DNA of 64,000 bases from Lewinellaceae bacterium. Its GTDB lineage: Bacteria; Bacteroidota; Bacteroidia; Chitinophagales; Saprospiraceae. The position numbers and the translations under genes were made by a program. The stretch covers positions 39,837-103,836 of the forward strand of contig CANJPT010000002.1 in assembly GCA_947476195.1 (NCBI GenBank), given 5' to 3'. Every line of letters begins with the position of its first letter. The first letter of the stretch is position 1. Below the pieces are notes generated by a model, which worked only from the letters and a program-made list of their open reading frames with translations, was not told the DNA's origin and ran no database searches. This document shows, piece by piece, positions 17,986-53,093 of the stretch.

Positions 17986-18423
17986 ATGCGAGTTATTTCA
18001 AAATCAGGAGAATACGGGCTGCGGGCATTGATGTATATGGTAGCACATCGGGAAGAAGGAGTATTTGTAAGCATCCGCGATATGGCTGAGCATCTTGACA
18101 TCTCATTCCATTTTTTGACCAAAATTCTGCAAAGCCTCACTCAAGCCGGTTTGCTCAAATCCTATAGGGGGCCGAACGGTGGTGTGGCCTTCAATATCTC
18201 ACCCGAAAAAGTGCTGCTTAGCGACGTGGTACGCATACTGGAAGGTGACGATTTTTTTGACAAGTGCCTGCTAGGTTTGCCGGGTTGTGGCAAGTTGGCT
18301 CCTTGCCCGATGCACAATATTTGGAAAGAAATCAAGGGGGCGCTCAAACACGAATTTGAGACCACTTCGATGGCTGAATTGGGGCAAGCAGCACTGTTGA
18401 ACAGGATTGGGTTGGTTTCGTAA
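17986..18423 (+). CDS. Rrf2-family Fe-S transcriptional regulator (NsrR/IscR-like)
   Basis: 145-aa winged-helix repressor beginning with the usual RVISKSGEYGLRALMYMV. The recognition helix region contains ISFHFLTKILQSLTQAGLL and the wing YRGPNGG. Three cysteines, C94, C101 and C107 (CLLGLPGCGKLAPC), are placed as in NsrR and IscR, where they hold an Fe-S cluster sensing NO or cluster status. Its position directly before a nitric-oxide-handling gene favours an NO-responsive role. A related palindrome lies before itself, the Nod-like gene, the porin gene and bcrC, which defines a candidate regulon. NsrR identity rather than IscR is inferred from context only. Confidence 0.88.
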   Translation: MRVISKSGEYGLRALMYMVAHREEGVFVSIRDMAEHLDISFHFLTKILQSLTQAGLLKSYRGPNGGVAFNISPEKVLLSDVVRILEGDDFFDKCLLGLPGCGKLAPCPMHNIWKEIKGALKHEFETTSMAELGQAALLNRIGLVS

Positions 18424-18665: not shown

Positions 18666-21080
18666 ATGAAAGAAGAAAACGGAGCCTCCAATAACGGCAC
18701 CCCAAAGAGCATCAATTACTTTATGAACACGAAGAATTGGTGGCAGCCGCTGCTGTTCATTTTGGTTACCAGTATTGCCGGCGTAGGCATGATTGGATAC
18801 CAAACCTATGTGGACGCGCCCCCCATGACCGGATTTAAAGCACCCTCAGGCGAAGTCCTGATCAACAAAACCACCATAGAAAACGGGCAGAAAGTGTTCC
18901 ACAAATATGCCTTGATGGAATACGGCTCCTTCATGGGAGACGGAGCGCAAAGAGGTCCAGACTTTACAGCGGAAGCTTTGCACCAAATTACGCTTTCCAT
19001 GAACGATTACTATGTCGAGACCTTCAAAAAAGACAATGGAAGGGATGCGAGTGATATGGAAAAGAAGATCATCGGAGAAAACATCAAAACAGAACTAAAG
19101 GCGAACAAATACAATGAGGCGGAGAACATTGTAATACTTTCTGAAGCCCAAACCTTCGCCTTGGGTAATCTGAAAAAGTATTACACAGACATGTTCATTG
19201 ACAATAATCCCGATGGGAAATTTCCGCCGAAAGATTACATCAAGGATCGGACTGAAACAGCAGATTTGGCGTCTTTCTTCTTTTGGGGGGCCTGGGTTTG
19301 CGTCACGGAACGACCTGGAACCAACTTTAGCTACACCCACAACTGGCCTTACGACCCCGTCGCCGGCAATACCCCCACCTCTCCTGTAATCCTGTGGAGT
19401 GTACTTGGACTATTGGCATTTGTGCTATCCTGCGGCATTGTGCTTTATTATATTGGGCAGTACAATCAACTCCCCAACAAGTTTTTCAAGCCTTCCAGCA
19501 AAGACCTACTAACGGCAGAACGGGTGAGCAGTTTCCAACCCACCAAGACCCAAAAGGCAACATACAAATTCTTCTTTGTTGCGATTCTTCTATTCTTCCT
19601 GCAAGTATCGAGCGGAATTTTTACGATCAATGATTTCGTCAACTTCCTGGGATTCTTTGGGATCCACACTTCAGAGGTGCTGCCGGTCACCATTACCCGC
19701 AGTTGGCACTTAATGTTATCGCTTTATTGGATCTCCATATGCTGGATAGCCTCTTCCATTTTCATCCTTCCAATTTTGGCCAAAAAGGAAATCCCCGGGC
19801 AATTGCGTCTGGTAAATATCCTTTGGATCATGCTTTTGGTCTTAGGGGGTGGTTCGCTGGCAGGAATGGTTCTTGGGCCCAAAGGTATATTGGGCAGTTG
19901 GTGGTATTTGCTGGGACACCAGGGCTGGGAATATGTGGACTTGGGGAAAATATATCAGGGATTGCTCATGGCTATCTTCATATTGTGGGGCGTGGTTGTT
20001 TATCGGGGTGTTAAACCTGCCTTTATCAAAAGTGAGCCCTGGAATCTTCCCAATTGGATCTTTTACTCCGTTATAGGCATCCCAATATTGTTTATTTCTG
20101 GATTTGTAGCAAAACCCGAGACCAATTTTGTCATTGCAGACTTTTGGCGCTGGATGGTAGTTCACATGTGGGTAGAGGCATTTTTCGAAGTATTTATTAC
20201 GGTCATCGTCAGTTATCTGATGGTTTTAATGGGCTTAGTAAGCCGGCAGGCAGCCATCCGGGTGGTCTATTTTGCCACCATACTTTTCCTTGGCACTGGG
20301 CTTTTGGGCATTTCACACAATTTTTATTGGAATGCAAAGCCCGTAGCGACTATGGCGCTGGGTTCCGTGTTTTCTACCCTTCAATTTGTTCCTTTAATCC
20401 TTTTGACCGTAGAGGGCTGGAGGTTCAAGAACATGCCCAAAATGGCCGTCAATGGGATTGAGCACAAACAGCTGGGAAATTTTGGATTCCCGGAAGTTTT
20501 CCTGTTTCTCGTTGCGGTCAACTTCTGGAATTTCTTTGGCGCGGGTGTCATGGGCATCATCGTCAACCTTCCGATCATGAATTATTTTGAACACGGTTCA
20601 TACCTGACAATCAACCACGCGCACGCCGCACTGATGGGCGTTTACGGCAATATTTCACTTGCTGCATTGCTTTTTGCCTCGAGGTTGTTGCTCAAACCAA
20701 ACCGTTGGAGCGAAAAGTTGGTCAAATTTTCGTTTTGGTCTATCAATGCCGGTTTGATGCTGATGGTGGTCCTGGATTTGTTCCCTGCGGGCTCTATTCA
20801 ATTCAAAGCCATTGTGGATCACGGACTTTGGTTTGCCCGTTCAGAAGCATTTATCGGTATTGGTATATTTAAAACCCTGACCTGGCTGCGTGGTGTCGGC
20901 GCTTCTGTATTCTTCTTTGGTGGCGTGATTCCATTGACCTGGTTTATTGTTTCGAGGATTCGCTCGCTCAAACCCGCTTCAAATACCGTGTATGAATTTG
21001 AGGATTTGCCGAAGGGAAAAGCTCAGCCAAATACGCGTCAGACGGAGGAGGAAGAAGAAGAAGAAGCGTTGACTTTTTAA
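18666..21080 (+). CDS. nod: Quinol-NO-reductase family protein with NO-dismutase (Nod) signature
   Basis: An 804-aa haem-copper-superfamily membrane protein with the N-terminal periplasmic extension and about 14 helices of qNOR. Retained residues are H348 (RSWHLM) and H651/H653 (NHAHAAL) for the haems, and H500 and E504 (VVHMWVEAFFEVF) at the FeB site. Three features differ from ordinary qNOR. The His pair at FeB is H551-N552 (GISHNFYW, normally FHHLY). The conserved Glu after it is Q573 (STLQFVPL). The quinol site, normally His-x3-Glu-x3-Phe, reads N322-x3-N326-x3-F330, and the C-terminal Asp of RxPGD is A746. From memory, these positions are those altered in the proposed NO dismutases of Methylomirabilis, which turn 2 NO into N2 and O2. 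A divergent NO reductase is the alternative. Confidence 0.85.
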   Translation: MKEENGASNNGTPKSINYFMNTKNWWQPLLFILVTSIAGVGMIGYQTYVDAPPMTGFKAPSGEVLINKTTIENGQKVFHKYALMEYGSFMGDGAQRGPDFTAEALHQITLSMNDYYVETFKKDNGRDASDMEKKIIGENIKTELKANKYNEAENIVILSEAQTFALGNLKKYYTDMFIDNNPDGKFPPKDYIKDRTETADLASFFFWGAWVCVTERPGTNFSYTHNWPYDPVAGNTPTSPVILWSVLGLLAFVLSCGIVLYYIGQYNQLPNKFFKPSSKDLLTAERVSSFQPTKTQKATYKFFFVAILLFFLQVSSGIFTINDFVNFLGFFGIHTSEVLPVTITRSWHLMLSLYWISICWIASSIFILPILAKKEIPGQLRLVNILWIMLLVLGGGSLAGMVLGPKGILGSWWYLLGHQGWEYVDLGKIYQGLLMAIFILWGVVVYRGVKPAFIKSEPWNLPNWIFYSVIGIPILFISGFVAKPETNFVIADFWRWMVVHMWVEAFFEVFITVIVSYLMVLMGLVSRQAAIRVVYFATILFLGTGLLGISHNFYWNAKPVATMALGSVFSTLQFVPLILLTVEGWRFKNMPKMAVNGIEHKQLGNFGFPEVFLFLVAVNFWNFFGAGVMGIIVNLPIMNYFEHGSYLTINHAHAALMGVYGNISLAALLFASRLLLKPNRWSEKLVKFSFWSINAGLMLMVVLDLFPAGSIQFKAIVDHGLWFARSEAFIGIGIFKTLTWLRGVGASVFFFGGVIPLTWFIVSRIRSLKPASNTVYEFEDLPKGKAQPNTRQTEEEEEEEALTF

Positions 21081-21277: not shown

Positions 21278-22717
21278 ATGAAATTTTTCAAACACATTCA
21301 AGTCTTGTGGCTCGTGGCCTTTGCTGCAGCGCTATCGTTGCAGTCCTGCCACAATGATGAGGTCATTCCATCAGACCGTTCACAGACAAAATCATTTGAT
21401 TACAATGTATATAAATCTTGGAACAACAAATACATGGAACTCGACCGCTATGCCAAAGGTAACCGGCCGGGTACTGGTCCAAGAGCCTTGGCATACATGG
21501 GTTTATCTGCCTACGAGTCGGTTGTAGCCGGAATGCCGGAATACAAGTCTCTCGAGCTTCAATATCCCGGACTTTCGCTTCCAAAAGTAGAAAATGGTCA
21601 GGAATATTACTGGTCTGCCTGTGTCAATGATTCCTATGCTTATCTGATGAAAAGATTCTTTTCCCGGTTGGAAATTGAATATCCTACCCTTTTTCAAAGC
21701 ATAGACCAACTTCACAACGTATTACACGAACAATATACCGATAAGACTACTCCTGAAATTCTGGATCGTTCTGAAGCGTACGGAAAATCGATCGCAACCG
21801 CCATTTACGAATGGGAAATCGGTGACATTGCCGGGCATAATGCGTTTTTAAATCCTCAGCCAGCCGAATATCACCCACCGCTCGGCCCTGGATTGTGGCA
21901 GCCTACCGTGTCGGATTACGGTGCCGCCATGTTTCCTTTTTGGGGTGATGTTCGTTGTTTTGCCATGGGTCAATCGGATCTGATCGCCCGCCCGCCATAT
22001 CCCTATAGTGAAGACGAAGGATCTCCCTTTTACGCACAAGCTTTTGAAACGTACAGTGCCGTAAATAACGTCATCAAAAATGGTCCTGGGGCATACGATG
22101 CAAAATGGAGAGCAGAATTCTGGAGCGACGATATGGTAGATATGACTTTTGGCCCTCCAACACACTTAGCTGCAATTGCAACTCAGGTAATCGAGAAAGA
22201 GAACCTGAACCTGGCCCAATGCGCAGAACTGTATGCCAAACTTGGTATGGCCATGAGTGATGCAGGCGTTGCCCTTTGGAAATCCAAATACATATACAAT
22301 GTAGAAAGGCCCATTTCCTATATCCGCCGAGTATTTGCTCAAAAATATCCGGAAGCAGCCAACTGGAAAACGATCCTGAACAACCCCCTTACTGGATTAA
22401 CTGGTTTTACCCCTCCATTTCCCGCTTATCCTTCTGGCCACTCTGGCTTTGGCGGTGCTGGTGCAAAAATTCTGTCCTCTTACTTTGAGTATACCCCGGA
22501 GCACTCGGGTACCTATACGTTTACCGACTTGTGTCACAAAGACCGGGTAGAATTTATCGGCACACCGCGCACTTTCACTTCTTTCAAAGAATTAGGCGAT
22601 GAAGATGCTTACTCCCGAATCCCACTGGGCGTACACTTCCGGATGGATTGCGATGAAGGGGTGCGCATTGGCGAATTGGCAGCACAGCGCGTGTTGGAGT
22701 TGCCATGGAAAAAATAA
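21278..22717 (+). CDS. Vanadium-haloperoxidase/PAP2-superfamily lipoprotein
   Basis: Residues 1-25 form a lipoprotein signal ending in the lipobox LQSC, so the mature protein is anchored in the membrane on the periplasmic or outer side. The C-terminal half carries all three vanadate/phosphate-binding blocks: K-x6-RP (KYIYNVERP), PSGH (AYPSGHSGFGGAG) and SR-x5-H-x3-D (SRIPLGVHFRMD). This is the complete site of vanadium haloperoxidases and PAP2 phosphatases. The length (479 aa) and the bacterial lipoprotein form fit the vanadium-dependent haloperoxidase-related group. Haloperoxidase or phosphatase activity cannot be decided by eye. It is monocistronic with a downstream terminator. Confidence 0.88.
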   Translation: MKFFKHIQVLWLVAFAAALSLQSCHNDEVIPSDRSQTKSFDYNVYKSWNNKYMELDRYAKGNRPGTGPRALAYMGLSAYESVVAGMPEYKSLELQYPGLSLPKVENGQEYYWSACVNDSYAYLMKRFFSRLEIEYPTLFQSIDQLHNVLHEQYTDKTTPEILDRSEAYGKSIATAIYEWEIGDIAGHNAFLNPQPAEYHPPLGPGLWQPTVSDYGAAMFPFWGDVRCFAMGQSDLIARPPYPYSEDEGSPFYAQAFETYSAVNNVIKNGPGAYDAKWRAEFWSDDMVDMTFGPPTHLAAIATQVIEKENLNLAQCAELYAKLGMAMSDAGVALWKSKYIYNVERPISYIRRVFAQKYPEAANWKTILNNPLTGLTGFTPPFPAYPSGHSGFGGAGAKILSSYFEYTPEHSGTYTFTDLCHKDRVEFIGTPRTFTSFKELGDEDAYSRIPLGVHFRMDCDEGVRIGELAAQRVLELPWKK

Positions 22718-22899: not shown

Positions 22900-23931
22900 A
22901 TGCAATCAGCAGACAACAGCATTTACAAGCAGCTGCCAGCCATCGTCAAGCAATATCAACTACACAATAGCCGAAAAGCAACCATTCAAGTCATCAATTC
23001 ATTCCTGCCTTTCATCGCTCTCTGGATTGCGATGTATGTTTGGCGAGACGAATCTATTTGGCTCATCATAGGCCTGGCTGTGGTCAATGCTTTCTTTCTC
23101 GTTCGGATTTTTATCATCCAGCATGACTGCGGCCACCAGTCGTTTACGGCTTCCCGCAAGGCAAACAACCTTATTGGCGCGTTGTGCAGTTTACTGACTT
23201 TTATCCCTTACAAATATTGGGCAAAAAACCATAACTACCACCATGGCCACAATGGTATTTTGGATAAAAACCGTGCCATTGGCGATATCAATACGCTGAC
23301 GGTCAATGAGTTTCGAAGCCTGAGTCCTTTTGAACAATTTAAATACAGGCTATTCCGAAGCGCACCAGTACTATTTTTGATAGGGCCCCTGTTCTACATT
23401 TTTTACAACAACCGCTTCCCAATTATCCGGCTAAAAGGCTGGGAAGTGGCCAATCGGGCGCTTTTGTGGAACAACTTTTTCCTGATCTCTCTACATGCCA
23501 CGCTTATTTATTTTTTGGGCTGGGAGGCCTTTACGCTCGTACATTTTCCAATTATTGTAGCATTTGGTACCATTGCAATTTGGTTTTTTTACGTGCAACA
23601 CCAGCATGAATACACCTATAAAGCCTGGAAAGACCAATGGAACTACCTCCAGGCTTCCATCCAAGGGAGCTCGTACTACAAGCTGCCCCGCCTTTTCCAT
23701 TGGCTTTCGGGCAATATCGGTTACCACCATATCCACCACCTCAACGCACTGGTGCCGAATTACGAACTCGCCCGCTGCCACCATGAGAATCCTATTTTTG
23801 ACCAGGTAGCAAATACCCTCACCTTCTGGCAAAGCCTGCACTGTATTTATAACAAACTCTGGGATGAAGACAAGGAAAAAATGATAGGCTGGCGGGAGTA
23901 TTCCAAGATGCAGAAAAAAACAAAAATATGA
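22900..23931 (+). CDS. Membrane fatty-acid desaturase (di-iron)
   Basis: Membrane di-iron enzyme of 343 aa with the three histidine boxes of acyl desaturases: HDCGH, HNYHH and HHIHH (GYHHIHHLNALVPNY). Hydrophobic pairs lie between the boxes as usual. The family inserts double bonds in acyl chains using O2 and two electrons. It is not AlkB, whose boxes differ. The last codons overlap the next gene by 4 bp (ATGA), so it is translationally coupled to the unknown 600-aa gene and heads an operon with NorC/NorB-like proteins and tyrosine phenol-lyase. An O2-requiring enzyme in this company is notable given the Nod-like gene upstream. Confidence 0.87.
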   Translation: MQSADNSIYKQLPAIVKQYQLHNSRKATIQVINSFLPFIALWIAMYVWRDESIWLIIGLAVVNAFFLVRIFIIQHDCGHQSFTASRKANNLIGALCSLLTFIPYKYWAKNHNYHHGHNGILDKNRAIGDINTLTVNEFRSLSPFEQFKYRLFRSAPVLFLIGPLFYIFYNNRFPIIRLKGWEVANRALLWNNFFLISLHATLIYFLGWEAFTLVHFPIIVAFGTIAIWFFYVQHQHEYTYKAWKDQWNYLQASIQGSSYYKLPRLFHWLSGNIGYHHIHHLNALVPNYELARCHHENPIFDQVANTLTFWQSLHCIYNKLWDEDKEKMIGWREYSKMQKKTKI

Positions 23932-25730
23932 ATCAAAAATCTGAGCACACCTTTCATATCCCTGTAATGGGAATCGCTTTTACCATTGATTCTCCCATTA
24001 AGGTAGCTCGATTCGGGATATCGTCTGTTATTTCAATCATTGAAGACCGCTTAATCGAAATAATGCGTAAGCATTATTATCCAAGTATCAACAAACCTTA
24101 TGAGCCCATTGCAAGCCATGAACCTGATTGTCGGGCAAAAAGAATAACCGATTATCTCAACCTGGTGAATACCATCGTTCAGCAGCAAATGCAAAAAATA
24201 AAAGCTGAAGCATTTGAAAGGGGATCTGAAATCGTCAAATACTTTGAGATGTTGCCCAAAGAAAGCCGATTAAAAAAATTGTATCACGAAATGGTAGATT
24301 GCTCCCAAGCAGAGGAAAAAGAAATCAAACAATCGTATCTTAGAACACAACTGGTAGCCGGTAGTATTGATGTAAACATCATGACAAAAGTTGACCGGGA
24401 TAACCGGGATAAAACTGGAAATATCATTCAAGATGGATCAGATGCCGTATCAGCATTGCGTGGCTATATAAATAGTAATCTCTCCAATTCTTCCATTGTC
24501 TTCTCTGCAGGACTGAATCCCAGGATATTCAACTATCTCGAGCACTTCAATGCTTTTGATCCGAATGACAATTTTGAATTCCAGAAAAAAGTAATTATTA
24601 AGGTAAGCGATTACCGGTCGGCCCTTATTCAGGGAAAGTATTTGGCCAAGAAAGGAATTTGGGTCAGCGAATTCAGAATTGAATCGGGATTAAACTGCGG
24701 CGGCCATGCTTTTGCCACAGATGGATATTTGCTCGGGCCCATTCTTGAAGAATTTAAAAACAAACGACAAGCATTATCAGAAGCTATTTTTGAGGTATTT
24801 AAGGCAGCCATCCACCAGAAGCTTGGTTTCAGTTTTACTCAGCCTCCTGAAATAGAAATTTCCGTGCAAGGTGGAATCGGGACGCATGAAGAAGATCTTT
24901 TTCTTCAGCAGTATTACCAGATAAACAGTACCGGTTGGGGCACTCCATTTCTGCTGGTTCCGGAAGCGACCACCGTAGATCCACATACCTTAGGTTTATT
25001 AAGCGCTGCAAAGGACAGTGATATCGTGCTGAGTAAAAACTCGCCACTTGGAGTCCGCTTTTACCATCTGAATGGCACCACCGCTGACGAAGAGAAGCAA
25101 CAACGTATTGCCAAAGGCAAACCTGGCAGCCCATGCACTGAAAAGCATTTGGCCTTTAATACCGAATTTACGGAGGAACCCATCTGCACAGCTTCACACC
25201 TCTATCAAAATCTGAAACTGGAACAATTGAAAACCCTACAACTGTCCAAGAAGGAGTTGGAAAGACAGCAAACAGATGTCCTGGCAAAAGAATGCTTGTG
25301 TGTAGGCCTTTGCAATGCTGCTTCTATATGCTACAAAGAACCTTTTTTGAGAAAAATGAAAGCCGTAACAATTTGTCCGGGACCAAACATTGTAAATTTT
25401 TCGGAAATCGTGTCGCTAAAGACAATGACAGACCACATTTATGGAAGAACAAACATTGTCAGTAACCAACAGCGCCCCCATGTATTTATCGCTGAAATGA
25501 AAATTTACCTCCATTTTTTGAAAGAACAACTGATGGATGGAAATGGGGATACCGTAGATACAAAAAGAAAGAATTACTACCAAACTTTCCTCCGAAATTT
25601 AACGGATGCCATCCATTATTATCAAAGCATTTTACAAAATATCGTGGTAAAGCAGGCTGAATTTATGCATGCATTGCAGCGTGCTGAAAAGGAAATTGTT
25701 GCCATTAAACTCGAATACGCACTTGATTAG
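23928..25730 (+). CDS. Conserved-looking protein of unknown function in the nor-like operon
   Basis: I do not recognise this 600-aa protein. It has no signal peptide and no membrane helices, so it should be cytosolic. The central part has a compact enzyme-like look: SSIVFSAGLNPRIFNYLEHF, KVIIKVSDYRSALIQGKYLA, then ESGLNCGGHAFATDGYLLGP, a Gly/Cys/His-rich segment suggestive of a TIM-barrel flavin or metal site. A cysteine group CLCVGLCNAASIC (about residues 463-475) with a further Cys in TICPGPN could bind an Fe-S cluster. The C-terminal 90 residues are helical. It overlaps the desaturase by 4 bp and precedes the cytochrome gene by 9 bp, so it probably serves the same NO- or electron-transfer process. 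Confidence 0.75.
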   Translation: MNQKSEHTFHIPVMGIAFTIDSPIKVARFGISSVISIIEDRLIEIMRKHYYPSINKPYEPIASHEPDCRAKRITDYLNLVNTIVQQQMQKIKAEAFERGSEIVKYFEMLPKESRLKKLYHEMVDCSQAEEKEIKQSYLRTQLVAGSIDVNIMTKVDRDNRDKTGNIIQDGSDAVSALRGYINSNLSNSSIVFSAGLNPRIFNYLEHFNAFDPNDNFEFQKKVIIKVSDYRSALIQGKYLAKKGIWVSEFRIESGLNCGGHAFATDGYLLGPILEEFKNKRQALSEAIFEVFKAAIHQKLGFSFTQPPEIEISVQGGIGTHEEDLFLQQYYQINSTGWGTPFLLVPEATTVDPHTLGLLSAAKDSDIVLSKNSPLGVRFYHLNGTTADEEKQQRIAKGKPGSPCTEKHLAFNTEFTEEPICTASHLYQNLKLEQLKTLQLSKKELERQQTDVLAKECLCVGLCNAASICYKEPFLRKMKAVTICPGPNIVNFSEIVSLKTMTDHIYGRTNIVSNQQRPHVFIAEMKIYLHFLKEQLMDGNGDTVDTKRKNYYQTFLRNLTDAIHYYQSILQNIVVKQAEFMHALQRAEKEIVAIKLEYALD

Positions 25731-25739
25731 TTTTTTAGG

Positions 25740-26195
25740 ATGCCTATCATATCTTTCCATAGTGCCGAATTTGATTACAATATGACGTTAAGACCTGTAC
25801 ATTCCTTCAGCTTTTTAAGCGTAGTATTTCTCGCTTTTTCGCTCAGTATTTACCTAAAACCGGCCTTTTCCTTACCAACTATTGATATAGCAAAACCAGA
25901 AGCTTCAAAGGGACGACTGACATGGCAAAAATACAATTGTCAGAGCTGTCATCAATTGTATGGCCTGGGGGGTTATTTAGGGCCTGACTTGACCAATGTT
26001 TATGCAGCCCCTAACAAGGGAGAACCTTTGATCCGGGCAATGCTTCAAATAGGCATTCCGCCGATGCCCTCTTTTAACCTACCCGAGGAGGAAATAGCAC
26101 TTTTAGTAGCCTTTCTTAAAGAGACCAATGCAAGCGGCACTGCCGATCCCCGAATGTTTTTAATCCTGTCCAACGGAATGACACAACGAAAATGA
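25740..26195 (+). CDS. NorC-like membrane-anchored cytochrome c
   Basis: A hydrophobic anchor (about residues 20-42) is followed by KGRLTWQKYNCQSCHQLYGLG, with the CxxCH haem-c site. This arrangement and GGYLGPDLTNVY resemble NorC of cytochrome-c NO reductase. The distal ligand is probably the Met in IPPMPSF. The size of 151 aa is normal for NorC. A second ATG at 25782 (MTLRPVHSFS) is an equally good start. The gene overlaps the NorB-like gene by 4 bp. It should pass electrons from the periplasm to that partner. Confidence 0.82.
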   Translation: MPIISFHSAEFDYNMTLRPVHSFSFLSVVFLAFSLSIYLKPAFSLPTIDIAKPEASKGRLTWQKYNCQSCHQLYGLGGYLGPDLTNVYAAPNKGEPLIRAMLQIGIPPMPSFNLPEEEIALLVAFLKETNASGTADPRMFLILSNGMTQRK

Positions 26196-27541
26196 CTAAT
26201 CTCTATCAAAATATTGGGAAATACTATCTGGCTACTGCATTACTGATGTTGTGTATCGGGTTGGTCTTTGGCCTAACAACCGCACTCTATTACATCATCC
26301 CAGGTGCTGAAAGCCATCTTTTAGGGTTCAATTCTTTAAGGCCCATGCATGTTTCCGCAATCATGTTCTGGATATTACTGGGCGCTACGGGTTGTGTTTA
26401 CAGTGGTTTGGCTTTTTTTTACAAGTTTGAGTCGCCAAACCCAATCGCCCGAACCCAATGGTTTCTATGGATTATAGCCATTGGAGGCATATTTTATTCC
26501 TATACGAAAGGTGATTTTGGCGGCCGCGAATATTGGGAGTTCAACCCAATTTGGGCCCTTCCGCTGGCAATGGCCTGGTTGCTTTTTATCCTAAACTTCA
26601 TAAAAGCCGTTAAAAAAATAAAACCCTGGCCAGTCTATGTTTGGATGTGGATGACTGGTATCGTGTTTTTCATTTTTGCCTTTACCGAAAACTATTTGTG
26701 GCTATTCCCATATTTTAGGGGGCATTTCGTGACAGATATGACCATTCAATGGAAGGTAAACGGTTCTCTATCAGGCTCCTGGAATCAGATGCTATACGGG
26801 ACGGCTTTCTTTTTGATGGAGCGCATCAATAAAAATTCTACTGTAGGCCACAGCAAACTTGCATTCGGGATGTATTTTCTGGGCTTATTCAACCTCATGT
26901 TCAATTGGGGACATCATATTTATACCCTTCCAACAGACGACTATGTGCGGTATACCGGTTATATCGTCAGTATGACAGAATGGGTGTTTTTTGCCAAGAT
27001 TGTTTACAACTGGCGGCAAAGCATCAGTGAGGCACAAAAACATTACCATTACTTCCCTTACCGTTTTTTAATGGCTGCCGATATATGGGTTCTGATCAAT
27101 TTGAGCCAGGCCATTTTGATGTCTATCCCAGCACTTAATCTTTATACGCATGGCACCCATGTAACCGTCGCACACGCCATGGGCACTACCATCGGGATCA
27201 ATAGTATGATCTTATTTGCTGCATGCTTCGAGTTTTTGGGGAATGGAAGCATCGCATTCAACACGAAAAACCGGTGGATTACGCTTTCTTTCTGGACAAC
27301 CCAAAGCGCATTGCTAGTATTTTGGGTATCCCTCAATCTGGCAGGGATAAAAAAAGGAATCTGGCAAATGAGCGAGCCTCAAATCCCTTTCAGCACAATG
27401 ATGAAAGGGCTCCACTTATATTTTGGGATCTTCTTTGTCGCTGGCTTAGTGTTGGCGACGGCGCTCTTTACCATTGTATCTATTCTATTGCGATCCTATT
27501 GGACAATTCCTGGCAAAGAATTGCAAACAGAGAACGTCTAG
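26192..27541 (+). CDS. Divergent NorB-like haem-copper oxidoreductase subunit I
   Basis: 449 aa, 12 predicted helices, size and plan of cytochrome-c NO reductase subunit NorB. H53 (LRPMHVSAI) matches the first low-spin haem ligand, H241-H242 (NWGHHIYTLP) the FeB histidine pair, and H328 (THVTVAHAM) the haem-b3 ligand. Three normally fixed residues differ. WVVHLWVEG of NorB aligns with WKVNGSLSG, replacing the first FeB His by N190 and the Glu by S194. The second low-spin ligand (AHGH) is M330. It is therefore not an ordinary cNOR. It may be one of the newer NOR-like families or have another activity. It is translated with the cytochrome gene. Confidence 0.85.
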   Translation: MTNLYQNIGKYYLATALLMLCIGLVFGLTTALYYIIPGAESHLLGFNSLRPMHVSAIMFWILLGATGCVYSGLAFFYKFESPNPIARTQWFLWIIAIGGIFYSYTKGDFGGREYWEFNPIWALPLAMAWLLFILNFIKAVKKIKPWPVYVWMWMTGIVFFIFAFTENYLWLFPYFRGHFVTDMTIQWKVNGSLSGSWNQMLYGTAFFLMERINKNSTVGHSKLAFGMYFLGLFNLMFNWGHHIYTLPTDDYVRYTGYIVSMTEWVFFAKIVYNWRQSISEAQKHYHYFPYRFLMAADIWVLINLSQAILMSIPALNLYTHGTHVTVAHAMGTTIGINSMILFAACFEFLGNGSIAFNTKNRWITLSFWTTQSALLVFWVSLNLAGIKKGIWQMSEPQIPFSTMMKGLHLYFGIFFVAGLVLATALFTIVSILLRSYWTIPGKELQTENV

Positions 27542-27567: not shown

Positions 27568-28971
<1,404 letters not shown>

Positions 28972-30774: not shown

Positions 30775-31299
30775 TTACAAGCGTTTCAAACCCTCCTCTA
30801 ATTCAAGCTTGCGCTCCTGCCCCAGATCCCGATCAATATCTTCGAACAGGAAATAAATACGCTCTAACTCGTCGTCGCTAAAAACCGACTCAGCCATGTT
30901 GAACAATTCGTCATTTTCTACCGCAATGTGGTCAAGCAGGTCGTTCACATACTCCTTGAGGAGTTTCTGGGTTTGAGGCCAATCCTTATTTTGCAGCGCG
31001 TCCTCAATTTCAGCCACCGTTTCCCGAAACATCTCGTGATGCCCCTCAAGTTCGGAAATGATATCGTTTAGCAGAAAATCAGGATTGTCTCTAAGTTTTT
31101 TAAAGAGCACCTCCTCCTCCTTATGGTGATGGAATTGATCACTGTATTCTCTGAAAAATAGGATCAGATGCCCTACCTTCTGGCTGTATTTATTCTCATT
31201 GATTTCCCAGGTATTTTGGAGCGACCGAACGATCCCTTCCGCCATACTGATGATGTCATGTTCTTTTACAAGAACCTCTATTGGATTGCTATTTGACAT
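30775..31299 (-). CDS. Hemerythrin-domain (HHE) protein
   Basis: A four-helix hemerythrin-like domain with the expected iron ligands: H14 (VKEHDI), a histidine cluster FHHHKEEEVLF, HHEMF and DHIAVENDELF. Length is 174 aa from the ATG at 31299 (MSNSNPIEVLVKEHD). An in-frame ATG at 31416 exists, but the added 39 residues are encoded by a dispersed repeat and are not part of the protein. Such proteins bind O2 or NO, or assist repair of damaged iron centres (RIC-like). It lies just downstream of the korB gene, separated by the repeat. A protective role for the Fe-S-rich pathway is plausible but inferred. Confidence 0.83.
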   Translation of the reverse strand: MSNSNPIEVLVKEHDIISMAEGIVRSLQNTWEINENKYSQKVGHLILFFREYSDQFHHHKEEEVLFKKLRDNPDFLLNDIISELEGHHEMFRETVAEIEDALQNKDWPQTQKLLKEYVNDLLDHIAVENDELFNMAESVFSDDELERIYFLFEDIDRDLGQERKLELEEGLKRL

Positions 31300-31321
31300 A
31301 ATTTTTTGCTCAAGTGATGTA

Positions 31322-31480
31322 GAATTTGTTCGGGAATTAAATTTTGGCCTGCACCCGGAAAATTTTATTCCATACAGCGTAAAAACTTTTGCAGGATCGC
31401 CCACATACGACTTCAAATTTCGCTTTGCCTGAAATACAACTTGCTCATTTTGAGCTCAAAACCAATCCCCAACCAAACCA
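31322..31480. repeat. 174-bp dispersed repeat, inverted and diverged copy
   Basis: The reverse complement shares with the copy at 34856 the segments GGTTTTGAG, the core GTGGGCGATCCTG and the terminal AATTCCCGAACAA. It fills the gap between korB (stop at 31481) and the hemerythrin gene. It extends an open frame in front of the hemerythrin start, which would mislead automatic start prediction. Confidence 0.65.
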
Positions 31481-36002: not shown

Positions 36003-36935
36003 CTATCGGGCCAATGCTTCAAAACTATTATTCAGGTAAACAGTGATCATATCCTTTCGATATTGTCTGGAGTATACGTCATTGTTCACAATACGCGATT
36101 TTTTGACCGCTTTCCGGATCAATTCCTTTGGATCATCTCCTACCTTTCCGGTGATAACTACCGGCTTTGGATCAACGCCCCCCAGCACAATTTTGATCTT
36201 CCCCTGCCGGTCTGTGGTGACTACAGTTGTTAGCGAACTAAATTCCAACGTTTCGCGCTGGCGCAATTTTTTAAAAACAGACCGGAACCCTCGATCGAGC
36301 GGAATTTCGATGGATTTTATCAGCGTAGTTTTATTGAATTTCCTGGGTTGGATACCATCGCCAGTGTAGATCTCCTCGAGGGGAACGACGTACGCTGCAT
36401 CCTTCTCCAAAACAGAGATCGTAGCATCCAAACTGATCAGGGCAATCGCGGTATCGGAAGCAAATTTGGAGAAACAATTTTCTGTTCCCCCGGTAGCAAT
36501 GCAAATGTCCCCCTTGCATTTCAGGCAGTATCCAACTGCTTCGCGCCACCATTCTGTTTGGTTGAAAAAGGAGCAGCGGTTTTCGCATAATACATTGCCG
36601 CCAATAGTGGCTGTTTTGCGGATAACCGGTGAAGCAACCGCTTGTGCAGCTTCAAGCAAGACCGGGAACTCCACAGCAAGCACGGGATAATTTTTTAACT
36701 CGTCCAGACAAACCAAAGCCCCGATACTCAGGCAATGATCCAGCGTCTGCACCTGCCTCATTTCTCCGATCCCGGTCAGGTCAATCAGGCAGGAACTGGT
36801 TTCAGTTTCCTGAAATTTGTTGACAATCACGTCAGTACCGCCTGCCAGATAGCGAAAGTCGTTTTCGTGTCCGGCGGCCAATTGTACGGCCTCTCCGATC
36901 GATTGAGGCCGAAAATATGTTTTTTCAATATTCAT
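36003..36935 (-). CDS. hcrB: 4-hydroxybenzoyl-CoA reductase, beta (FAD, extra 4Fe-4S) subunit
   Basis: 310-aa FAD subunit of a xanthine-oxidase-family enzyme. AGGTDV (31-36) and TIGGN (110-114) bind FAD. Between them and the C-terminal domain is an insertion with C117, C121, C137, C140, C145 and C154 (CENRCSFFN, GYCLKCKGDIC, TENC). This matches the [4Fe-4S]-binding loop unique to HcrB of Thauera, whose ligands I recall as C122, C138, C146 and C155. The extra cluster lets the enzyme run towards reduction, removing the phenolic hydroxyl from 4-hydroxybenzoyl-CoA. It lies one base downstream of the fused hcrC-hcrA gene. Confidence 0.9.
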   Translation of the reverse strand: MNIEKTYFRPQSIGEAVQLAAGHENDFRYLAGGTDVIVNKFQETETSSCLIDLTGIGEMRQVQTLDHCLSIGALVCLDELKNYPVLAVEFPVLLEAAQAVASPVIRKTATIGGNVLCENRCSFFNQTEWWREAVGYCLKCKGDICIATGGTENCFSKFASDTAIALISLDATISVLEKDAAYVVPLEEIYTGDGIQPRKFNKTTLIKSIEIPLDRGFRSVFKKLRQRETLEFSSLTTVVTTDRQGKIKIVLGGVDPKPVVITGKVGDDPKELIRKAVKKSRIVNNDVYSRQYRKDMITVYLNNSFEALAR

Positions 36936-36936
36936 A

Positions 36937-39732
36937 TCAGGCCAGGTTTGATTCTGAAGAAACTTCTGTCTTTTTAATTTCGCTCATTTGGCGAAGCACC
37001 TCTTCTGCATCGATCGGAAGTTTGGTGATACGCACGCCTATTGCATTAAAAATAGCATTCGTGACCGCCGGGATCACAGGATGCAATGCACCTTCCCCAC
37101 ACTCCTTGGCCCCAAACGGGCCTTCAGGGTCTATGGTCTCAATGATGTTGGTGTGTATATCCGGGGTATCGAGGCTGGTCGGTATCTTATAATCAAGAAA
37201 ATTGTTGTTAACCAGTAGTCCGTTGAAATAGCGCATCTGTTCAGTCAATGCCTGACCAAGACCCATGTGCCACGAACCTTCCAACTGGCCCTCCACAGCC
37301 ATTGGATTAATGGCTTTTCCACAATCATGCGCACCCCAAACCTGGAGTACTTTAACCTGGCCAGTGTCTGCGTCCACCTGTACTTCAGCGACACAGGCGC
37401 CAAAACTGTACGAAGGACTCAGGCCCGCACCAGCTCCTTTAAAATCACCACCCAACTTTGGCGAGATGTATTTACCACTCACATTGACGGCGCCCCGCCC
37501 TGCAATGAGCAGATCGACGGCCTCGATCCAGGACAGGTCTACAGATCTGTCATTCGAAAAGACGCGACTGCCGACAAGATTCAATTCTGATTCTTGTATC
37601 TCTTTATGGGCAGATACGGCAGTGAGAATCTCAGATTTGAGATTTTCTGCCGCGTCCTTAGCTGCATTACCTGCCATAAAGGTCACACGGCTGGAATAAC
37701 TGCCTAAGTCTACGGGCGTTAGCAAGGTATCCGCAGCCAGCACGAAGATCAATTCCGGATCAATTCCAAGCACTTCAGCTACCATAATGACTAACATGGT
37801 ATCGCTGCCCTGTCCGATGTCGCTTGCACCGGAAGTTACCAGCACCCGCCCGTCAAAATCGACTTTGAGGTGGACGACCGATTGTGGCAATTCATTCCAA
37901 ATGATTGGCAAAGCACTGCCGCTGATAAAAAAACCACAAGCGAGCCCAAGGCCATGCCCCGGTGGCAGTTTCCCGATACGTTCTTTCCACCCCGACTGTT
38001 CCATGACCTTTTGCAGAGATTCACGGCTACCGTTCGAGGTGATACGGTATTGTCCAACGGTGAGCGTATTGGCGTCCAGAAAATTTTTCATCCGCATCTC
38101 GCCTGGATCCATCTGGATTCTGTGTGCCAGATCATCGATGAGAGACTCGACCGCAAATCTGGAATTGACGGCTCCGTGACCACGCATGGCGCCACATTGT
38201 GGTTTGTTGGTATAAACCCGGAATGTCCGGAAGCCAAAGTTGTCCAATTTATAAGGCGCTTGAAGGAGCACCCCGTTATAATAGGAAGTAACGACCCCAA
38301 AGCTTCCATACGCGCCTCCGTCTATGGCAATGTCGGCATCCAGTACCTGAATGATGCCTTCCAGGGAAATCCCCATTTCCACGGTCATTTTTGATGGGTG
38401 CCGGCCGTGATTGGTCAGAAACACCTCTTCTCGCGTGAGCCGCACCCGTACGGGCCGACCAGTTTTACGTGCAAGATGGGCGATGATGACCTCATGCGGG
38501 AAAGGGTCGCTCTTGCCCCCGAATCCGCCACCTACGTATGGTTTGATAACCCGGACCCTGCTGAGAGGCACACCCATGACTTTGGCCAGGCTTCGATGCA
38601 GGTAATGGGGAACCTGAGTGGCGGTGTGCATGGTCAACCCATTTTCATCCCAATATGCTGTCGCTGCATGTGGCTCTGTAAATCCATGGTTGACCCCTTG
38701 AAATTCGAAGGTCATTTTGGAGCTCAGGTCCGCATCCCGCAATCCCTGTTGCTGATCGCCGAAACGGAGCTCAGCCTTTTTGTGAACGTTGTTATTGAAT
38801 TTGCCGTAGTCATGAATTTTTTCGCAATCGCCTATATCATTGAGTGAATCGTCAATCGTTAAAAATGCTTTGATCGGGCGATATTTTACCCTGATCAACT
38901 TGCAGGCTTCAGCTGCAATGGATGCTGTATCGGCAGCGACGGCGGCGACGATCTCACCCAGATAGCGTGTTTTTTCAATGGCCATTGCTGTCTCATCCTG
39001 GGAGATTGGCAGTACCCCGAATTTGACCGGGAGTTCCGGGCCGGTGGCTATGTAATGAACACCCTCCAATTTCAACGCTTCTGAAAGATCAATGTCCTCA
39101 ATTTTAGCATGCGGATAAATGCTGCGCAGGAATTTGCAATTCAAGGCATTTTTTATGCGCAGGTCGTCTGCATATTCAGCGATACCACAGACTTTTTTGC
39201 CAGCTTCGATATAGGGCCTGGATACGCCCACAGCGGAAGCGCCTGCCTGTCGGACCGCTGGTTTTGATTCCGGTGTCCCGGCAGCGTATGAAGCCACTGC
39301 TTCAATGATTTTTTTGTAGCCCGTGCAGCGGCACAGATTTCCGGACAGCGCCTCTTTGATCTCCTGGATCGAGGGATTGGGATGATTGTTCACAAAATCC
39401 AGGGCGGTCAGCACCATGCCAGGGGTACAGAATCCGCATTGAATAGCTCCTTTTCCCACGAATTTTTGCTGAAGCGCATGCAGTGCTCCATTTTGGGCCA
39501 GTGCTTCAATGGTAGTAATTTCAGCGTTGTGGAAGCGAAGGGCCGGCGTGATGCAGCTCAATACCGGTTTGCCGGCAGCCAGCACGGTGCAGGCGCCACA
39601 GGTACCCTGCTCGCAGCCTATTTTAGTGCCGGTCAGGCCAATTTTGTCACGTAGGACGGCAGACAGCATCTCGTGGCTTTCCACCAGAAGTTCGTGTTGT
39701 TTACCGTTAATTTTGAGCTTGATCCGTTCCAT
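36937..39732 (-). CDS. hcrA: 4-hydroxybenzoyl-CoA reductase, fused gamma-alpha (2Fe-2S + molybdenum) subunit
   Basis: 931 aa combining two subunits that are separate in Thauera. Residues 1-155 are HcrC-like: C40, C45, C48 and C60 (CEQGTCGAC) bind the plant-type 2Fe-2S cluster; C99, C102, C134 and C136 (CGFC, CRC) the second. Residues about 170-925 are the molybdopterin subunit, with YVGGGFGGKSDPFPHEV and the active-site Glu in GAKECGEGAL. With HcrB this reduces 4-hydroxybenzoyl-CoA to benzoyl-CoA. The closest alternative would be another Mo-hydroxylase of the family, but the HcrB partner with its Cys loop and the bcr neighbours argue for the reductase. Confidence 0.88.
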   Translation of the reverse strand: MERIKLKINGKQHELLVESHEMLSAVLRDKIGLTGTKIGCEQGTCGACTVLAAGKPVLSCITPALRFHNAEITTIEALAQNGALHALQQKFVGKGAIQCGFCTPGMVLTALDFVNNHPNPSIQEIKEALSGNLCRCTGYKKIIEAVASYAAGTPESKPAVRQAGASAVGVSRPYIEAGKKVCGIAEYADDLRIKNALNCKFLRSIYPHAKIEDIDLSEALKLEGVHYIATGPELPVKFGVLPISQDETAMAIEKTRYLGEIVAAVAADTASIAAEACKLIRVKYRPIKAFLTIDDSLNDIGDCEKIHDYGKFNNNVHKKAELRFGDQQQGLRDADLSSKMTFEFQGVNHGFTEPHAATAYWDENGLTMHTATQVPHYLHRSLAKVMGVPLSRVRVIKPYVGGGFGGKSDPFPHEVIIAHLARKTGRPVRVRLTREEVFLTNHGRHPSKMTVEMGISLEGIIQVLDADIAIDGGAYGSFGVVTSYYNGVLLQAPYKLDNFGFRTFRVYTNKPQCGAMRGHGAVNSRFAVESLIDDLAHRIQMDPGEMRMKNFLDANTLTVGQYRITSNGSRESLQKVMEQSGWKERIGKLPPGHGLGLACGFFISGSALPIIWNELPQSVVHLKVDFDGRVLVTSGASDIGQGSDTMLVIMVAEVLGIDPELIFVLAADTLLTPVDLGSYSSRVTFMAGNAAKDAAENLKSEILTAVSAHKEIQESELNLVGSRVFSNDRSVDLSWIEAVDLLIAGRGAVNVSGKYISPKLGGDFKGAGAGLSPSYSFGACVAEVQVDADTGQVKVLQVWGAHDCGKAINPMAVEGQLEGSWHMGLGQALTEQMRYFNGLLVNNNFLDYKIPTSLDTPDIHTNIIETIDPEGPFGAKECGEGALHPVIPAVTNAIFNAIGVRITKLPIDAEEVLRQMSEIKKTEVSSESNLA

Positions 39733-41885: not shown

Positions 41886-42659
41886 TTAAGCATTGGTCCA
41901 AATTGGTTTCCTTTTTTCAATAAATGCAGCAATACCTTCATTGGCATCTGCCGTGTTCATCAATTGATTTACATATATTGACTCCAGCTGTGGCAGGAAA
42001 TTTCCGAGTACATGGTTGAATTTTATGCGCGCAGCCCGTACGGCAAATCGCAAGGAAGCAGCACTTTTGGGCAGAATGTATTGCTCAATCCAGGCATCTG
42101 TACCAGACTGTAATTCGGTCTTGTTTTCAAATATCCTGTTTATCAGCCCGAAGGATTCCGCTTCTTCCGCCTCAATAATTCTTCCTGTGAGCAGCAAGTC
42201 TTCTGCACGCGACAGGCCTATTTTTTCCGGTAAAAGGATCGAGGCGGGTGGAGGGAACACGCCCAACGTGATTTCTGGTTGTCCGAGCCTGGCCGTTTTG
42301 TCAGCAAACATCTGGTTGCACATTAGTGCGAGTTCCAGTCCGCCACCCAGGCATTGGCCGCTGATTTTGGCCAAGCTGGGAATGGATAATTCACGTAGGC
42401 TTAGAAACAAGCGGTGAAATCCGCGCAGCATGGTGGCTGCGAATTCTTTTTGATGCTCTTCTACGCTCGCGCCAAAAGAGAAATGTTTTCCGGCGCCTTC
42501 AAAAGTGATGAGTTTCAATTCGCAGTTTTGGCTAAAGCGGTCCAATTGCGTCTGTAATTGCTCCATCATAAGGTAGTCCAAAACATTTCCATTTTCGTCC
42601 TGCAGGACAATTTTAGCGACGGATCCGCCGTGTGTATACTCAACATTGATCTTTTCCAT
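41886..42659 (-). CDS. dch: Cyclohexa-1,5-diene-1-carbonyl-CoA hydratase
   Basis: 257-aa crotonase-fold enzyme. GKHFSFGASVEEHQ (about 57-70) is the signature I associate with Dch/BadK-type dienoyl-CoA hydratases, and GQCLGGGLELALMCNQMFAD forms the second oxyanion loop. It adds water to the product of benzoyl-CoA reductase, giving 6-hydroxycyclohex-1-ene-1-carbonyl-CoA. It sits 6 bp after oah and close to had, which take the next two steps, so the assignment is well supported. General enoyl-CoA hydratase activity is the fallback. Confidence 0.88.
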   Translation of the reverse strand: MEKINVEYTHGGSVAKIVLQDENGNVLDYLMMEQLQTQLDRFSQNCELKLITFEGAGKHFSFGASVEEHQKEFAATMLRGFHRLFLSLRELSIPSLAKISGQCLGGGLELALMCNQMFADKTARLGQPEITLGVFPPPASILLPEKIGLSRAEDLLLTGRIIEAEEAESFGLINRIFENKTELQSGTDAWIEQYILPKSAASLRFAVRAARIKFNHVLGNFLPQLESIYVNQLMNTADANEGIAAFIEKRKPIWTNA

Positions 42660-42665
42660 AATCGG

Positions 42666-43790
42666 TCAAACCGTTTCGATTTTGTATTGTGGTGAGGTGC
42701 TTATGAGCAATTCTTCATTCCATTCTGCGCCCTCCGCGAGCAATTGGCGGAGTTTGATAAAATCAATTTCCCGATCATGCTTTGGTCCTTCATTGAAGGC
42801 CCTAAAGCCGGCTTTGGCTTCGGTCATCATATTGAGGGCCAGCCATTCGCGACTGCTTTCTTTGTTTTTATCCCAGTGCTCGAGTTTTTTCTTGCGCATC
42901 TCAGACAGCGTTTTGGCCATGCAGTTTGGGAAGGTGTGGAGCAATTTGGCGACTAATTTGTTCACTGTCTCGTCCAACTTAGTCAGGTCCAGAGTTCCTT
43001 TGGCCATTAGTTCCTTTCCCTTTTGAAGTTCCTCCCCCGTTTTCTGAGTGCCGAAAATGATCCGGCCAAATTCATCTGCATAGCGGTCAATATTGACCAA
43101 AGGATTGGGCACAAATTGCCCATCCACTTTTAGCACAGGAGCTATGTCTGTGATCAAACCCAACTGATAGGCCTGATGGGCTGTCCAGGGTTCGCAAAGA
43201 GTCAGGGAAGCCATGGCGCGTTCGATGCCTACGAACAAGTGCAAGAAATCCGTAGCGCCGCCGATGGCAGCACTACCGTGTTTAGGGCCAGCCTGACCGA
43301 ATCGGGCGAGGTCAGAAGCAATAGTAAAATCCGCAGCCATACCAATTTCTTGTCCACCGCCAATACGCATACCGTTGACCCGGCAAATGACCGGCTTCTC
43401 ACATTTTAGGATGGCGCTCACCATATCGTTGAACAAACGCATGTATTGTGCGTATTCCTGTGGATTGCCTGCATAATACTCGGCGTATTCCTTGGTGTTA
43501 CCGCCTGTGCAAAAGGCTTTATCCCCAACCGCAGTGAAAATCACAGCTACTACACTCCTGTCGTTAGAGGCTTCGCCAAAGGCGAGTATGACCTCCTTGA
43601 CAGCACGGGTGGTATAGGAGTTAAACTGTTGTGGGTTGTTCAAAACGATCCAGGCGTTGTAAAGCCCTGAAACAGGTGTGCCGCCATGATCCAGACACGG
43701 GCGCCTTTCAAAAATAATATCGGTGTACTCGTGTTCCGTCAGGTTATGGTCTTTAAGTTTAGTCATGGCAACTGCATTTTGGATGTACAA
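42666..43790 (-). CDS. oah: 6-oxocyclohex-1-ene-1-carbonyl-CoA hydrolase (ring-opening, Oah/BamA)
   Basis: 374-aa crotonase-superfamily hydrolase that opens the alicyclic ring to 3-hydroxypimelyl-CoA. Characteristic features are LDHGGTPVSGLYNAWIVLNN near the start, FCTGGNTKEYAEYYAGNPQE, and AGPKHGSAAIGGATDFLHLF, which are typical of Oah/BamA and not of ordinary hydratases. BamA is the usual marker gene for anaerobic aromatic degradation, and length and motifs fit. A second Met at residue 9 (MTKLKDHNLTEHEY) is an alternative start. It lies 8 bp after had. Confidence 0.93.
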   Translation of the reverse strand: MYIQNAVAMTKLKDHNLTEHEYTDIIFERRPCLDHGGTPVSGLYNAWIVLNNPQQFNSYTTRAVKEVILAFGEASNDRSVVAVIFTAVGDKAFCTGGNTKEYAEYYAGNPQEYAQYMRLFNDMVSAILKCEKPVICRVNGMRIGGGQEIGMAADFTIASDLARFGQAGPKHGSAAIGGATDFLHLFVGIERAMASLTLCEPWTAHQAYQLGLITDIAPVLKVDGQFVPNPLVNIDRYADEFGRIIFGTQKTGEELQKGKELMAKGTLDLTKLDETVNKLVAKLLHTFPNCMAKTLSEMRKKKLEHWDKNKESSREWLALNMMTEAKAGFRAFNEGPKHDREIDFIKLRQLLAEGAEWNEELLISTSPQYKIETV

Positions 43791-43798
43791 TTTTGGAT

Positions 43799-44857: not shown

Positions 44858-44897
44858 TGCATATTCGTTGTCATCATCAGCGTTCCCACCAATAAGT

Positions 44898-48186: not shown

Positions 48187-48263
48187 ACCTTCTTCGTTAT
48201 TTGTTATGTATATTGACCAGAATTTTTGTTTCAACTTCGCCGTCTTCTCCACACCTCCAAGGG

Positions 48264-53070: not shown

Positions 53071-53093
53071 GATATCCGATTTAAAACTTGCAC

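What the first reader, a model, noticed from the sequence alone, without database searches (positions are those of the whole stretch)
18666..21080. Candidate nitric-oxide dismutase (oxygen-producing) in a Bacteroidota genome
Seen in the sequence: an 804-aa qNOR-type protein in which the FeB His pair reads H551-N552, the following conserved Glu is Q573, and three of four quinol-site residues are replaced (N322, N326, A746; F330 kept). H348, H500, E504, H651 and H653 are kept. Established knowledge, from memory: the proposed NO dismutases of Methylomirabilis and strain HdN1 differ from qNOR at these same sites, and do not need quinol because 2 NO give N2 and O2. Inference: this organism may make O2 from NO. 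The alternative is a qNOR-like reductase with another electron donor.
Basis: partly seen in the sequence, partly recalled or inferred. Interest (0 to 1): 0.95.

Follow-up and report, generated by a model that had tools for sequence, protein, structure and literature searches.

The report
Oxygen-making NO dismutase candidate in Saprospiraceae
This gene, from a likely Saprospiraceae bacterium, encodes a nitric-oxide-dismutase-type protein that is predicted to split nitric oxide into nitrogen gas and oxygen in the dark; such proteins are already reported from this phylum, but nearly all of the related genomes checked also carry an N2O reductase, so what the protein really makes is open and could be tested in relatives that are likely in culture.

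Summary
ORF 18666-21080 (+, 804 aa) has a qNOR fold with H551-N552 for the FeB His pair, Q573 for the second catalytic Glu, and N322/N326/A746 for quinol-site H328/E332/D746. It falls in a 38-row Nod-type clade (100/100) that holds two Muricauda proteins; all 8 HH/E qNOR rows lie outside. Nod-type genes in Bacteroidota are in print since 2012: a new member of a known kind. O2 formation is untested here; a 2026 paper says the enzyme was never isolated.
Not seen in the papers I looked into: of 51 Nod-carrying genomes, 46 have NosZ above cut-off and 2 more have pieces; none has a convincing NirS, 9 have NirK, 5 NrfA. The host has NosZ and none of the three. In 23 of 51 neither cNOR nor the divergent NorB-like 'X' was found, yet 19 of these have full NosZ. 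This fits NO/N2O scavenging and leaves N2O as a possible product. The same window holds cyt c + X and a class I benzoyl-CoA pathway; X and BcrB are enriched among the family's Nod carriers.

The parts
18666..21080 (+). Nod-type heme-copper oxidoreductase, 804 aa: qNOR fold, FeB pair H551-N552, Q573, three of four quinol-site residues replaced, no CXXCH
17986..18423 (+). Rrf2-family regulator just upstream (superfamily model above cut-off; NsrR, the NO sensor, is one of several hits below their cut-offs)
   Evidence: an Rrf2 relative starts within 900 bp upstream, same strand, in 13 of 46 N-type and 11 of 24 HG-type loci with enough upstream DNA
21278..22717 (+). PAP2-family protein (vanadium-haloperoxidase-like, label recalled) next to nod
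   Evidence: relatives in 17 of 80 nod loci
22900..23931 (+). Membrane fatty-acid desaturase (O2-dependent enzyme class by established knowledge)
   Evidence: of 80 nod loci, also near nod in L005 and L007 only
23928..25730 (+). 600-aa protein of no known family
   Evidence: no Pfam hit under E 0.1 and no NCBIfam hit; relatives in 20 of 80 nod loci
25740..26195 (+). Small c-type cytochrome (one CQSCH), likely partner of X
   Evidence: relative present in 9 of the 10 nod loci that hold X
26192..27541 (+). X: divergent NorB-like HCO without the TM6 FeB His (N190 aligns there) and with M330 where cNOR has the low-spin heme His
27589..28971 (+). Tyrosine phenol-lyase (above NCBIfam cut-off)
30775..31416 (-). 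Hemerythrin HHE-domain protein, weak match to DnrN (Fe-S repair) below cut-off
36003..39732 (-). Two genes best matching 4-hydroxybenzoyl-CoA reductase beta and alpha (below curated cut-offs)
41886..58050 (-). Class I benzoyl-CoA pathway cluster: Dch-like, Oah, Had, thiolase, BcrD, BcrA, BcrB, BcrC and further genes (Oah, Had, BcrB, BcrC above cut-off)

Best explanation
The 804-aa protein is a Nod-type relative of quinol NO reductase in which three of four quinol-site residues are replaced, and it likely consumes nitric oxide without quinol electrons, predicted to dismutate 2 NO to N2 and O2. Shown by sequence: qNOR domains and heme ligands kept, FeB third ligand His to Asn, second Glu to Gln, quinol-site His/Glu/Asp lost, clade separate from qNOR. 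Inferred: an Rrf2-type, perhaps NO-responsive, regulator turns the gene on; NO comes from neighbours, because no NirS, NirK or NrfA was found in this genome; the O2 formed is taken up at once by the cell's own terminal oxidases or by O2-dependent enzymes such as the desaturase nearby; N2O met in the same places is removed by NosZ.
For: All the residue changes that define putative Nod are met (against the list in PMC3413370). One clade with Muricauda proteins, 38 rows, 100/100, long stem; 8 HH/E qNOR rows outside. AlphaFold2 model matches 3AYF (TM 0.84) and other qNORs. No CXXCH, so no cytochrome c entry inside the protein. Two further high-scoring COX1 genes in the genome (not typed further) could take up O2. 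Evidence for labelled O2 from 18O-nitrite in M. oxyfera, as told in PMC3413370 (passages).
Against: NosZ above cut-off in 12 of 12 Nod carriers of the family sample and in 46 of 51 of a wider set, including 19 of 23 in which no cNOR or X was found: an enzyme that skips N2O does not explain this. The low-spin heme histidines are kept, as if electrons still enter. The window also carries class I benzoyl-CoA reductase, known to be O2-sensitive (recalled). No Nod has been purified, and foraminiferal nor genes with nod features come from organisms that made N2O (PMC6636425 passage). The model is under pLDDT 50 at 550-553 and 556-561, the FeB stretch itself.
Confidence: 0.5

Rival explanations
1. 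It is an N2O-forming NO reductase whose electrons arrive by a route other than the qNOR quinol site; it is used for NO scavenging and its N2O is finished by NosZ.
For: NosZ with Nod 12/12 and with cNOR-type matches 11/11 against 29/126 in genomes with neither these nor a qNOR; Nod carriers therefore look like NOR carriers. Genomes with Nod but no cNOR or X found: 19/23 NosZ+. Low-spin heme ligands kept. Rrf2-type regulator upstream in part of the loci. Opposing results on dismutation are mentioned in print.
Against: No alternative donor site is visible: no CXXCH, quinol residues lost. Asn at FeB and Gln for Glu would be expected to impair the reductase chemistry (inference). NosZ may serve N2O taken from outside: 29 of 126 genomes with no such NO enzyme have it.
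Confidence: 0.32
2. It dismutates NO to N2O plus O2 (4 NO give 2 N2O and O2), so that NosZ is needed downstream; this joins both sets of facts.
For: Would explain loss of the quinol site and NosZ co-occurrence together. The start of the abstract of PMC11408285 (listing) mentions an NO dismutation pathway in an ammonia-oxidising archaeon.
Against: I know of no Nod shown to do this; M. oxyfera lacks a recognisable NosZ yet makes N2 (PMC3413370 passages).
Confidence: 0.1
3. It is an ordinary quinol-oxidising qNOR.
For: Same fold and domain make-up; best solved relative 3AYF.
Against: FeB HH to HN, E to Q, quinol residues lost, apart from the 8 qNOR rows in the tree.
Confidence: 0.02

Closest known systems
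Putative NO dismutases (Nod/NOD) of Muricauda, Algoriphagus and Sediminibacterium (Bacteroidota)
   Same: H-N FeB pair, Gln for Glu; same clade as Muricauda and Algoriphagus proteins in the tree; Sediminibacterium is known from PMC10264387 only
   Different: Saprospiraceae sublineage (92% to nearest, L005); N-N-F-A quinol pattern, where the Algoriphagus group has H-G-F-G or H-G-I-G; near DesA and cyt c-X, in a window with a class I benzoyl-CoA cluster
Nod of Methylomirabilis (DAMO_2434/2437) and strain HdN1
   Same: Published residue signature
   Different: Not aligned here (sequences not obtained). M. oxyfera has pMMO near nod and no recognisable NosZ; in this genome NosZ was found and NirS/NirK/NrfA were not
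Quinol-dependent NO reductase (3AYF, 28PN)
   Same: Fold, N-terminal cyt c-like domain without heme, heme ligands
   Different: Active site and quinol site
Cytochrome c NO reductase NorB (for X)
   Different: Two of the six HCO histidines missing in all 43 aligned rows

Membership tests
Putative NO dismutase (Nod) | FeB ligand His560 (3AYF) replaced by Asn | tested here: met
   N552
Putative NO dismutase (Nod) | Catalytic-site Glu581 replaced by Gln | tested here: met
   Q573
Putative NO dismutase (Nod) | Quinol-site residues His328, Glu332, Asp746 replaced | tested here: met
   N322, N326, A746 (F330 kept)
Putative NO dismutase (Nod) | Other heme/FeB histidines and qNOR fold kept, no heme c | tested here: met
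Putative NO dismutase (Nod) | Clade separate from qNOR, with known putative Nods | tested here: met
   With two Muricauda and three Algoriphagus proteins among 38 rows, 100/100. M. oxyfera, HdN1 and M. ruestringensis Nods were not in the tree, and the tool warns of long branches among the qNOR rows
Putative NO dismutase (Nod) | Makes N2 and O2 from NO | not testable with these tools
   Needs biochemistry; not shown for any purified Nod
Quinol NO reductase (qNOR) | His-His FeB pair and Glu581 | tested here: not met
Quinol NO reductase (qNOR) | Quinol-binding His/Glu/Asp | tested here: not met
Oxygenic denitrifier (organism level) | NO supply from its own NirS or NirK | tested here: not met
   None found in G000 (97% complete): PF02239 no match, TIGR02376 best 34 bits against cut-off 296
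cNOR (for X, 26192-27541) | Three FeB histidines and bis-His low-spin heme | tested here: not met
   TM6 His position is N or Y, TM10 H-x-H is H-x-M

The most novel reading that the evidence does not exclude
In Bacteroidota, nod, a small cytochrome c and X form one NO-handling system with two heme-copper enzymes whose active sites have both lost a histidine: Nod splits NO, X deals with the product (O2 or N2O) using cytochrome c electrons, and NosZ finishes N2O. Cells that make no NO themselves thereby turn neighbours' NO into N2, and in this lineage pair it with anaerobic breakdown of aromatics.
Probability: 0.15. Interest if true: 0.88.

Novelty: new member of a known kind. Interest (0 to 1): 0.58.

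Why it matters
Nod genes are used as markers of oxygenic denitrification without N2O (titles and abstract starts). If Nod-type enzymes of Bacteroidota sit almost always in genomes with NosZ and seldom with a nitrite reductase, the marker may not mean 'oxygenic denitrifier' there. PMC12569097 (passages) reports nir and nosZ without nor in 9% of Bacteroidota genomes with denitrification genes (as I read it); Nod could be the missing NO step in some. Two strains in the set whose records are not marked as MAGs, Muricauda sp. CP2A (L034) and Cerina litoralis F89 (L028), have NirK, Nod and NosZ with no cNOR or X found, so the product question can be asked in living cells.

Tried and rejected
Ordinary qNOR, pseudogene and sequencing-error readings were rejected. 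Getting Methylomirabilis or HdN1 Nod sequences failed: the one genome-contig scan (best 80 of 277) and two protein searches (best 120 each) listed none. X as an nNOR, sNOR or gNOR: rejected, because those are B-family-related (PMC11388526 passages) while X is nearest to cNOR and cbb3. No promoter signal above the shuffles near nod (4 found, mean 5.3); terminator-like sites 8 against a mean of 4.7, not pursued.

Judgements behind the counts. NirS: 17 of 51 genomes have a PF02239 match and 9 of 51 pass Pfam's lax cut-off of 25.5 bits, but single matches reach 29 bits at most (47 summed in one frame) over parts of the model; I took them as beta-propellers, so 'no convincing NirS' is my reading. 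NirK: two hits at 174-177 bits (G572, G583) are below the cut-off of 296 and are not among the 9. cNOR in the 51 genomes was read from the X query, which found all 11 cNOR-only genomes of the family sample; two of the 11 counted are a partial frame (G565) and a weak match (G543, 19% identity). In the family sample one of the 11 cNOR-type matches is partial (G060), and the qNOR of G125 was judged by length and 38% identity, not by residues. qNOR was not searched in the 51 genomes, and completeness is not told for 50 of them. The 51 and the 150 genomes overlap (G093 = G540, G044 = G547, G145 = G561 by identical NosZ places and scores). Fisher tests ignore kinship. Neighbour counts on the 80 loci are lower bounds, as many contigs are short. 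L105 duplicates L059 in the tree (identical rows).

Literature limits: of the 4 papers I opened only PMC13386854; of the 22 I opened passages of PMC6636425, PMC10286720, PMC13386854, PMC10359470 and PMC5852087. Murali 2024 and Ruff 2024 are not held.

Full report
WHAT IS THERE. The ORF at 18666-21080 + encodes 804 aa with the qNOR cytochrome c-like domain (PF22085) and COX1 domain (PF00115). No NCBIfam model matches it at E 0.001. Its best solved relative is Geobacillus qNOR 3AYF (561 bits), and its AlphaFold2 model (mean pLDDT 78; under 50 at 550-553 and 556-561) matches 3AYF with TM 0.84, then the other qNORs.

ACTIVE SITE. Aligned to 3AYF, the window protein has H500, E504, H551, N552 and Q573 for FeB-site H508, E512, H559, H560 and E581, and N322, N326, F330 and A746 for quinol-site H328, E332, F336 and D746. 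The H-N pair is present in the window protein, in all 119 further proteins aligned (from the best 120 of 2029 hits) and in all 80 loci; Gln at 573 in 119 of these 120 proteins and 80 of 80 loci. None of these rows keeps E332 or D746 (L054 and L057 have a gap at 746). H328 is kept in 26 of the 80 loci: L059-L081, L083, L084 and L028.

TREE. IQ-TREE on 46 rows (45 different): 38 Nod-type rows (all H-N and Q) form one clade, support 100/100, stem 4.8 changes per site; the 8 rows with HH and E (two solved qNORs and six Bacteroidota qNORs) lie apart. The window protein sits with L005 (92% identity, Saprospiraceae MAG). Muricauda, Maribacter, Robiginitalea and Cerina proteins lie in its 21-row subclade; Algoriphagus, Hydrotalea and others lie in further branches. 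The tool warns of long branches among the qNOR rows. M. oxyfera, HdN1 and M. ruestringensis Nods are missing from the tree. In the wider phylum sample, 5 of 395 genomes have a full-length match at 55% identity or more, the host among them; the other full-length matches are at 28-38%.

WHAT IS KNOWN. PMC3413370 (passages) defined putative Nod by exactly these changes and already named Muricauda ruestringensis. PMC10264387 (passages) reports nod in Sediminibacterium and Algoriphagus MAGs. PMC13386854 (section 21 read, other passages) found 66 nod-carrying MAGs in lakes, Bacteroidota among them, cites two Bacteroidota nod clades from earlier work, notes NsrR beside nod in Cecembia, and states that the enzyme has not been isolated and that opposing results exist. 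PMC6636425 (passages) notes foraminiferal nor genes with nod features in N2O producers. A search for 'Saprospir' with 'nitric oxide dismutase' found 0 papers in the held library; this library lacks most subscription journals.

HOST. G000 has 4.76 Mb and is 97% complete. Family mate G093 and the genome of L006 (titled Saprospiraceae, handle G540) share the same NosZ place and score, so the host is likely Saprospiraceae. It has four COX1-family genes: two high-scoring ones not typed further, Nod, and X. NosZ clade II is present (926 bits). NirS, NirK and NrfA were not found.

CO-OCCURRENCE IN THE FAMILY. Of 150 family genomes, 12 have Nod (69-100% identity), 1 a qNOR-like protein (38%), and 11 only a cNOR-type match, one of them partial. 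NosZ above cut-off: 12 of 12, 1 of 1, 11 of 11, and 29 of the remaining 126 (Fisher 12/12 against 29/126, p 1.3e-7, kinship ignored). Two same-genus genomes have neither Nod nor NosZ.

CO-OCCURRENCE IN A WIDER SET. I took G000 and the genomes behind 50 of the 80 loci (limit of 50; even-numbered L006-L056, L058-L080 and L084). NosZ is above cut-off in 46 of 51 and in pieces in 2 more; G560 (L046) and G563 (L052) have no match and G587 (L079, Indibacter) only a weak one. NirS: no convincing one; 9 of 51 pass Pfam's lax cut-off with partial matches of at most 47 bits, which I read as beta-propellers. NirK above cut-off 9 of 51, NrfA 5 of 51. X was found in 17 and cNOR-type proteins in 11; in 23 neither was found, and 19 of these 23 have full NosZ. 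So the usual Nod carrier in this set looks like a consumer of NO and N2O that does not make NO by a known nitrite reductase. Most are MAGs, so single absences may be gaps.

NEIGHBOURHOOD. In the window the order is Rrf2, nod, PAP2, desaturase, unknown 600 aa, cyt c, X, tyrosine phenol-lyase. L084, a Saprospiraceae locus with the other Nod type (56% identity), has Rrf2, nod, PAP2, cyt c, X and tyrosine phenol-lyase in the same order; L076 has the same up to X, where its contig ends. In L059, L060, L069 and L074 cyt c and X stand divergently right beside nod, and in L063 about 1.7 kb away. X lies in 10 of 80 nod loci; in the other 70 it was not found in the DNA held. In the family X is in 5 of 12 Nod carriers and 1 of 138 others (p 7.7e-6). 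This supports a functional link, not an obligate one: in 34 of 51 Nod carriers X was not found.

X. The 449-aa protein is NorB-like (best solved match cNOR 4xyd, 4e-9); the predicted fold ties cbb3 and cNOR. In 43 aligned rows the invariant histidines are H53, H241, H242, H320 and H328; the TM6 FeB histidine is absent (N190 here, Tyr in others) and M330 stands where cNOR has the second low-spin heme ligand. Among the 120 relatives listed, sources that name it call it NorB or cbb3 subunit I. Its reaction is unknown; I would guess NO or O2 as substrate.

AROMATICS. The same window encodes a class I benzoyl-CoA pathway (Oah, Had, BcrB and BcrC above curated cut-offs; BcrA, BcrD, Dch and 4-hydroxybenzoyl-CoA reductase as best hits below cut-off). 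BcrB is above cut-off in 5 of 150 family genomes; 4 of these carry Nod, and the fifth (G054) is 72% complete (4/12 against 1/138, p 1e-4). A Bacteroidota MAG expressing anaerobic benzoyl-CoA degradation is in print (PMC8099898, passages), so this is not a first.

HOW IT LIKELY WORKS. Shown: family, residues, context, co-occurrence. Inferred: NO enters from outside, induces the gene through the Rrf2 regulator, and is consumed by Nod at a heme b3/FeB site with an Asn ligand and no quinol feed. The lost donor site favours a redox-neutral reaction, 2 NO to N2 and O2, with O2 drained by the cell's oxidases or desaturase. The NosZ pattern favours N2O as product. I hold the first at 0.5, the second at 0.32 and dismutation to N2O plus O2 at 0.1.

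Noticed in passing
window 26192-27541 (+), with cyt c 25740-26195: X: a large family (over 2000 hits, several labelled Bacteroidota) of NorB-like HCOs; the 43 aligned rows lack the TM6 FeB His and have Met at the low-spin heme position. Named NorB or cbb3 in databases and enriched in Nod carriers of the family.
   Followed up: partly
window 31481-58050 (-): Class I benzoyl-CoA pathway with 4-hydroxybenzoyl-CoA reductase-like genes, a 2-oxoacid:ferredoxin oxidoreductase and a ferredoxin; BcrB in 5 of 150 family genomes, 4 of them Nod carriers.
   Followed up: partly
window 23928-25730 (+): 600-aa protein of no Pfam or NCBIfam family, relatives in 20 of 80 nod loci.
   Followed up: partly
window 27589-28971 and 59055-60434 (+): A tyrosine phenol-lyase and a second gene of the tryptophanase/tyrosine phenol-lyase family in a window that also degrades aromatics; 11 of 80 nod loci hold a relative.
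   Followed up: no
window 22900-23931; L005, L007: A fatty-acid desaturase (O2-dependent class) near nod in the window, L005 and L007 only; a possible local O2 user.
   Followed up: partly
L046 and L052: Nod loci whose genomes gave no NosZ match; both share one neighbourhood (tyrosine phenol-lyase, PAP2, nod), as does L043, whose genome was not searched.
   Followed up: no
L021 and L025: N-type nod on contigs labelled Chlorobiota and Thermoanaerobaculia, within the Bacteroidota clade: transfer or misbinning.
   Followed up: no
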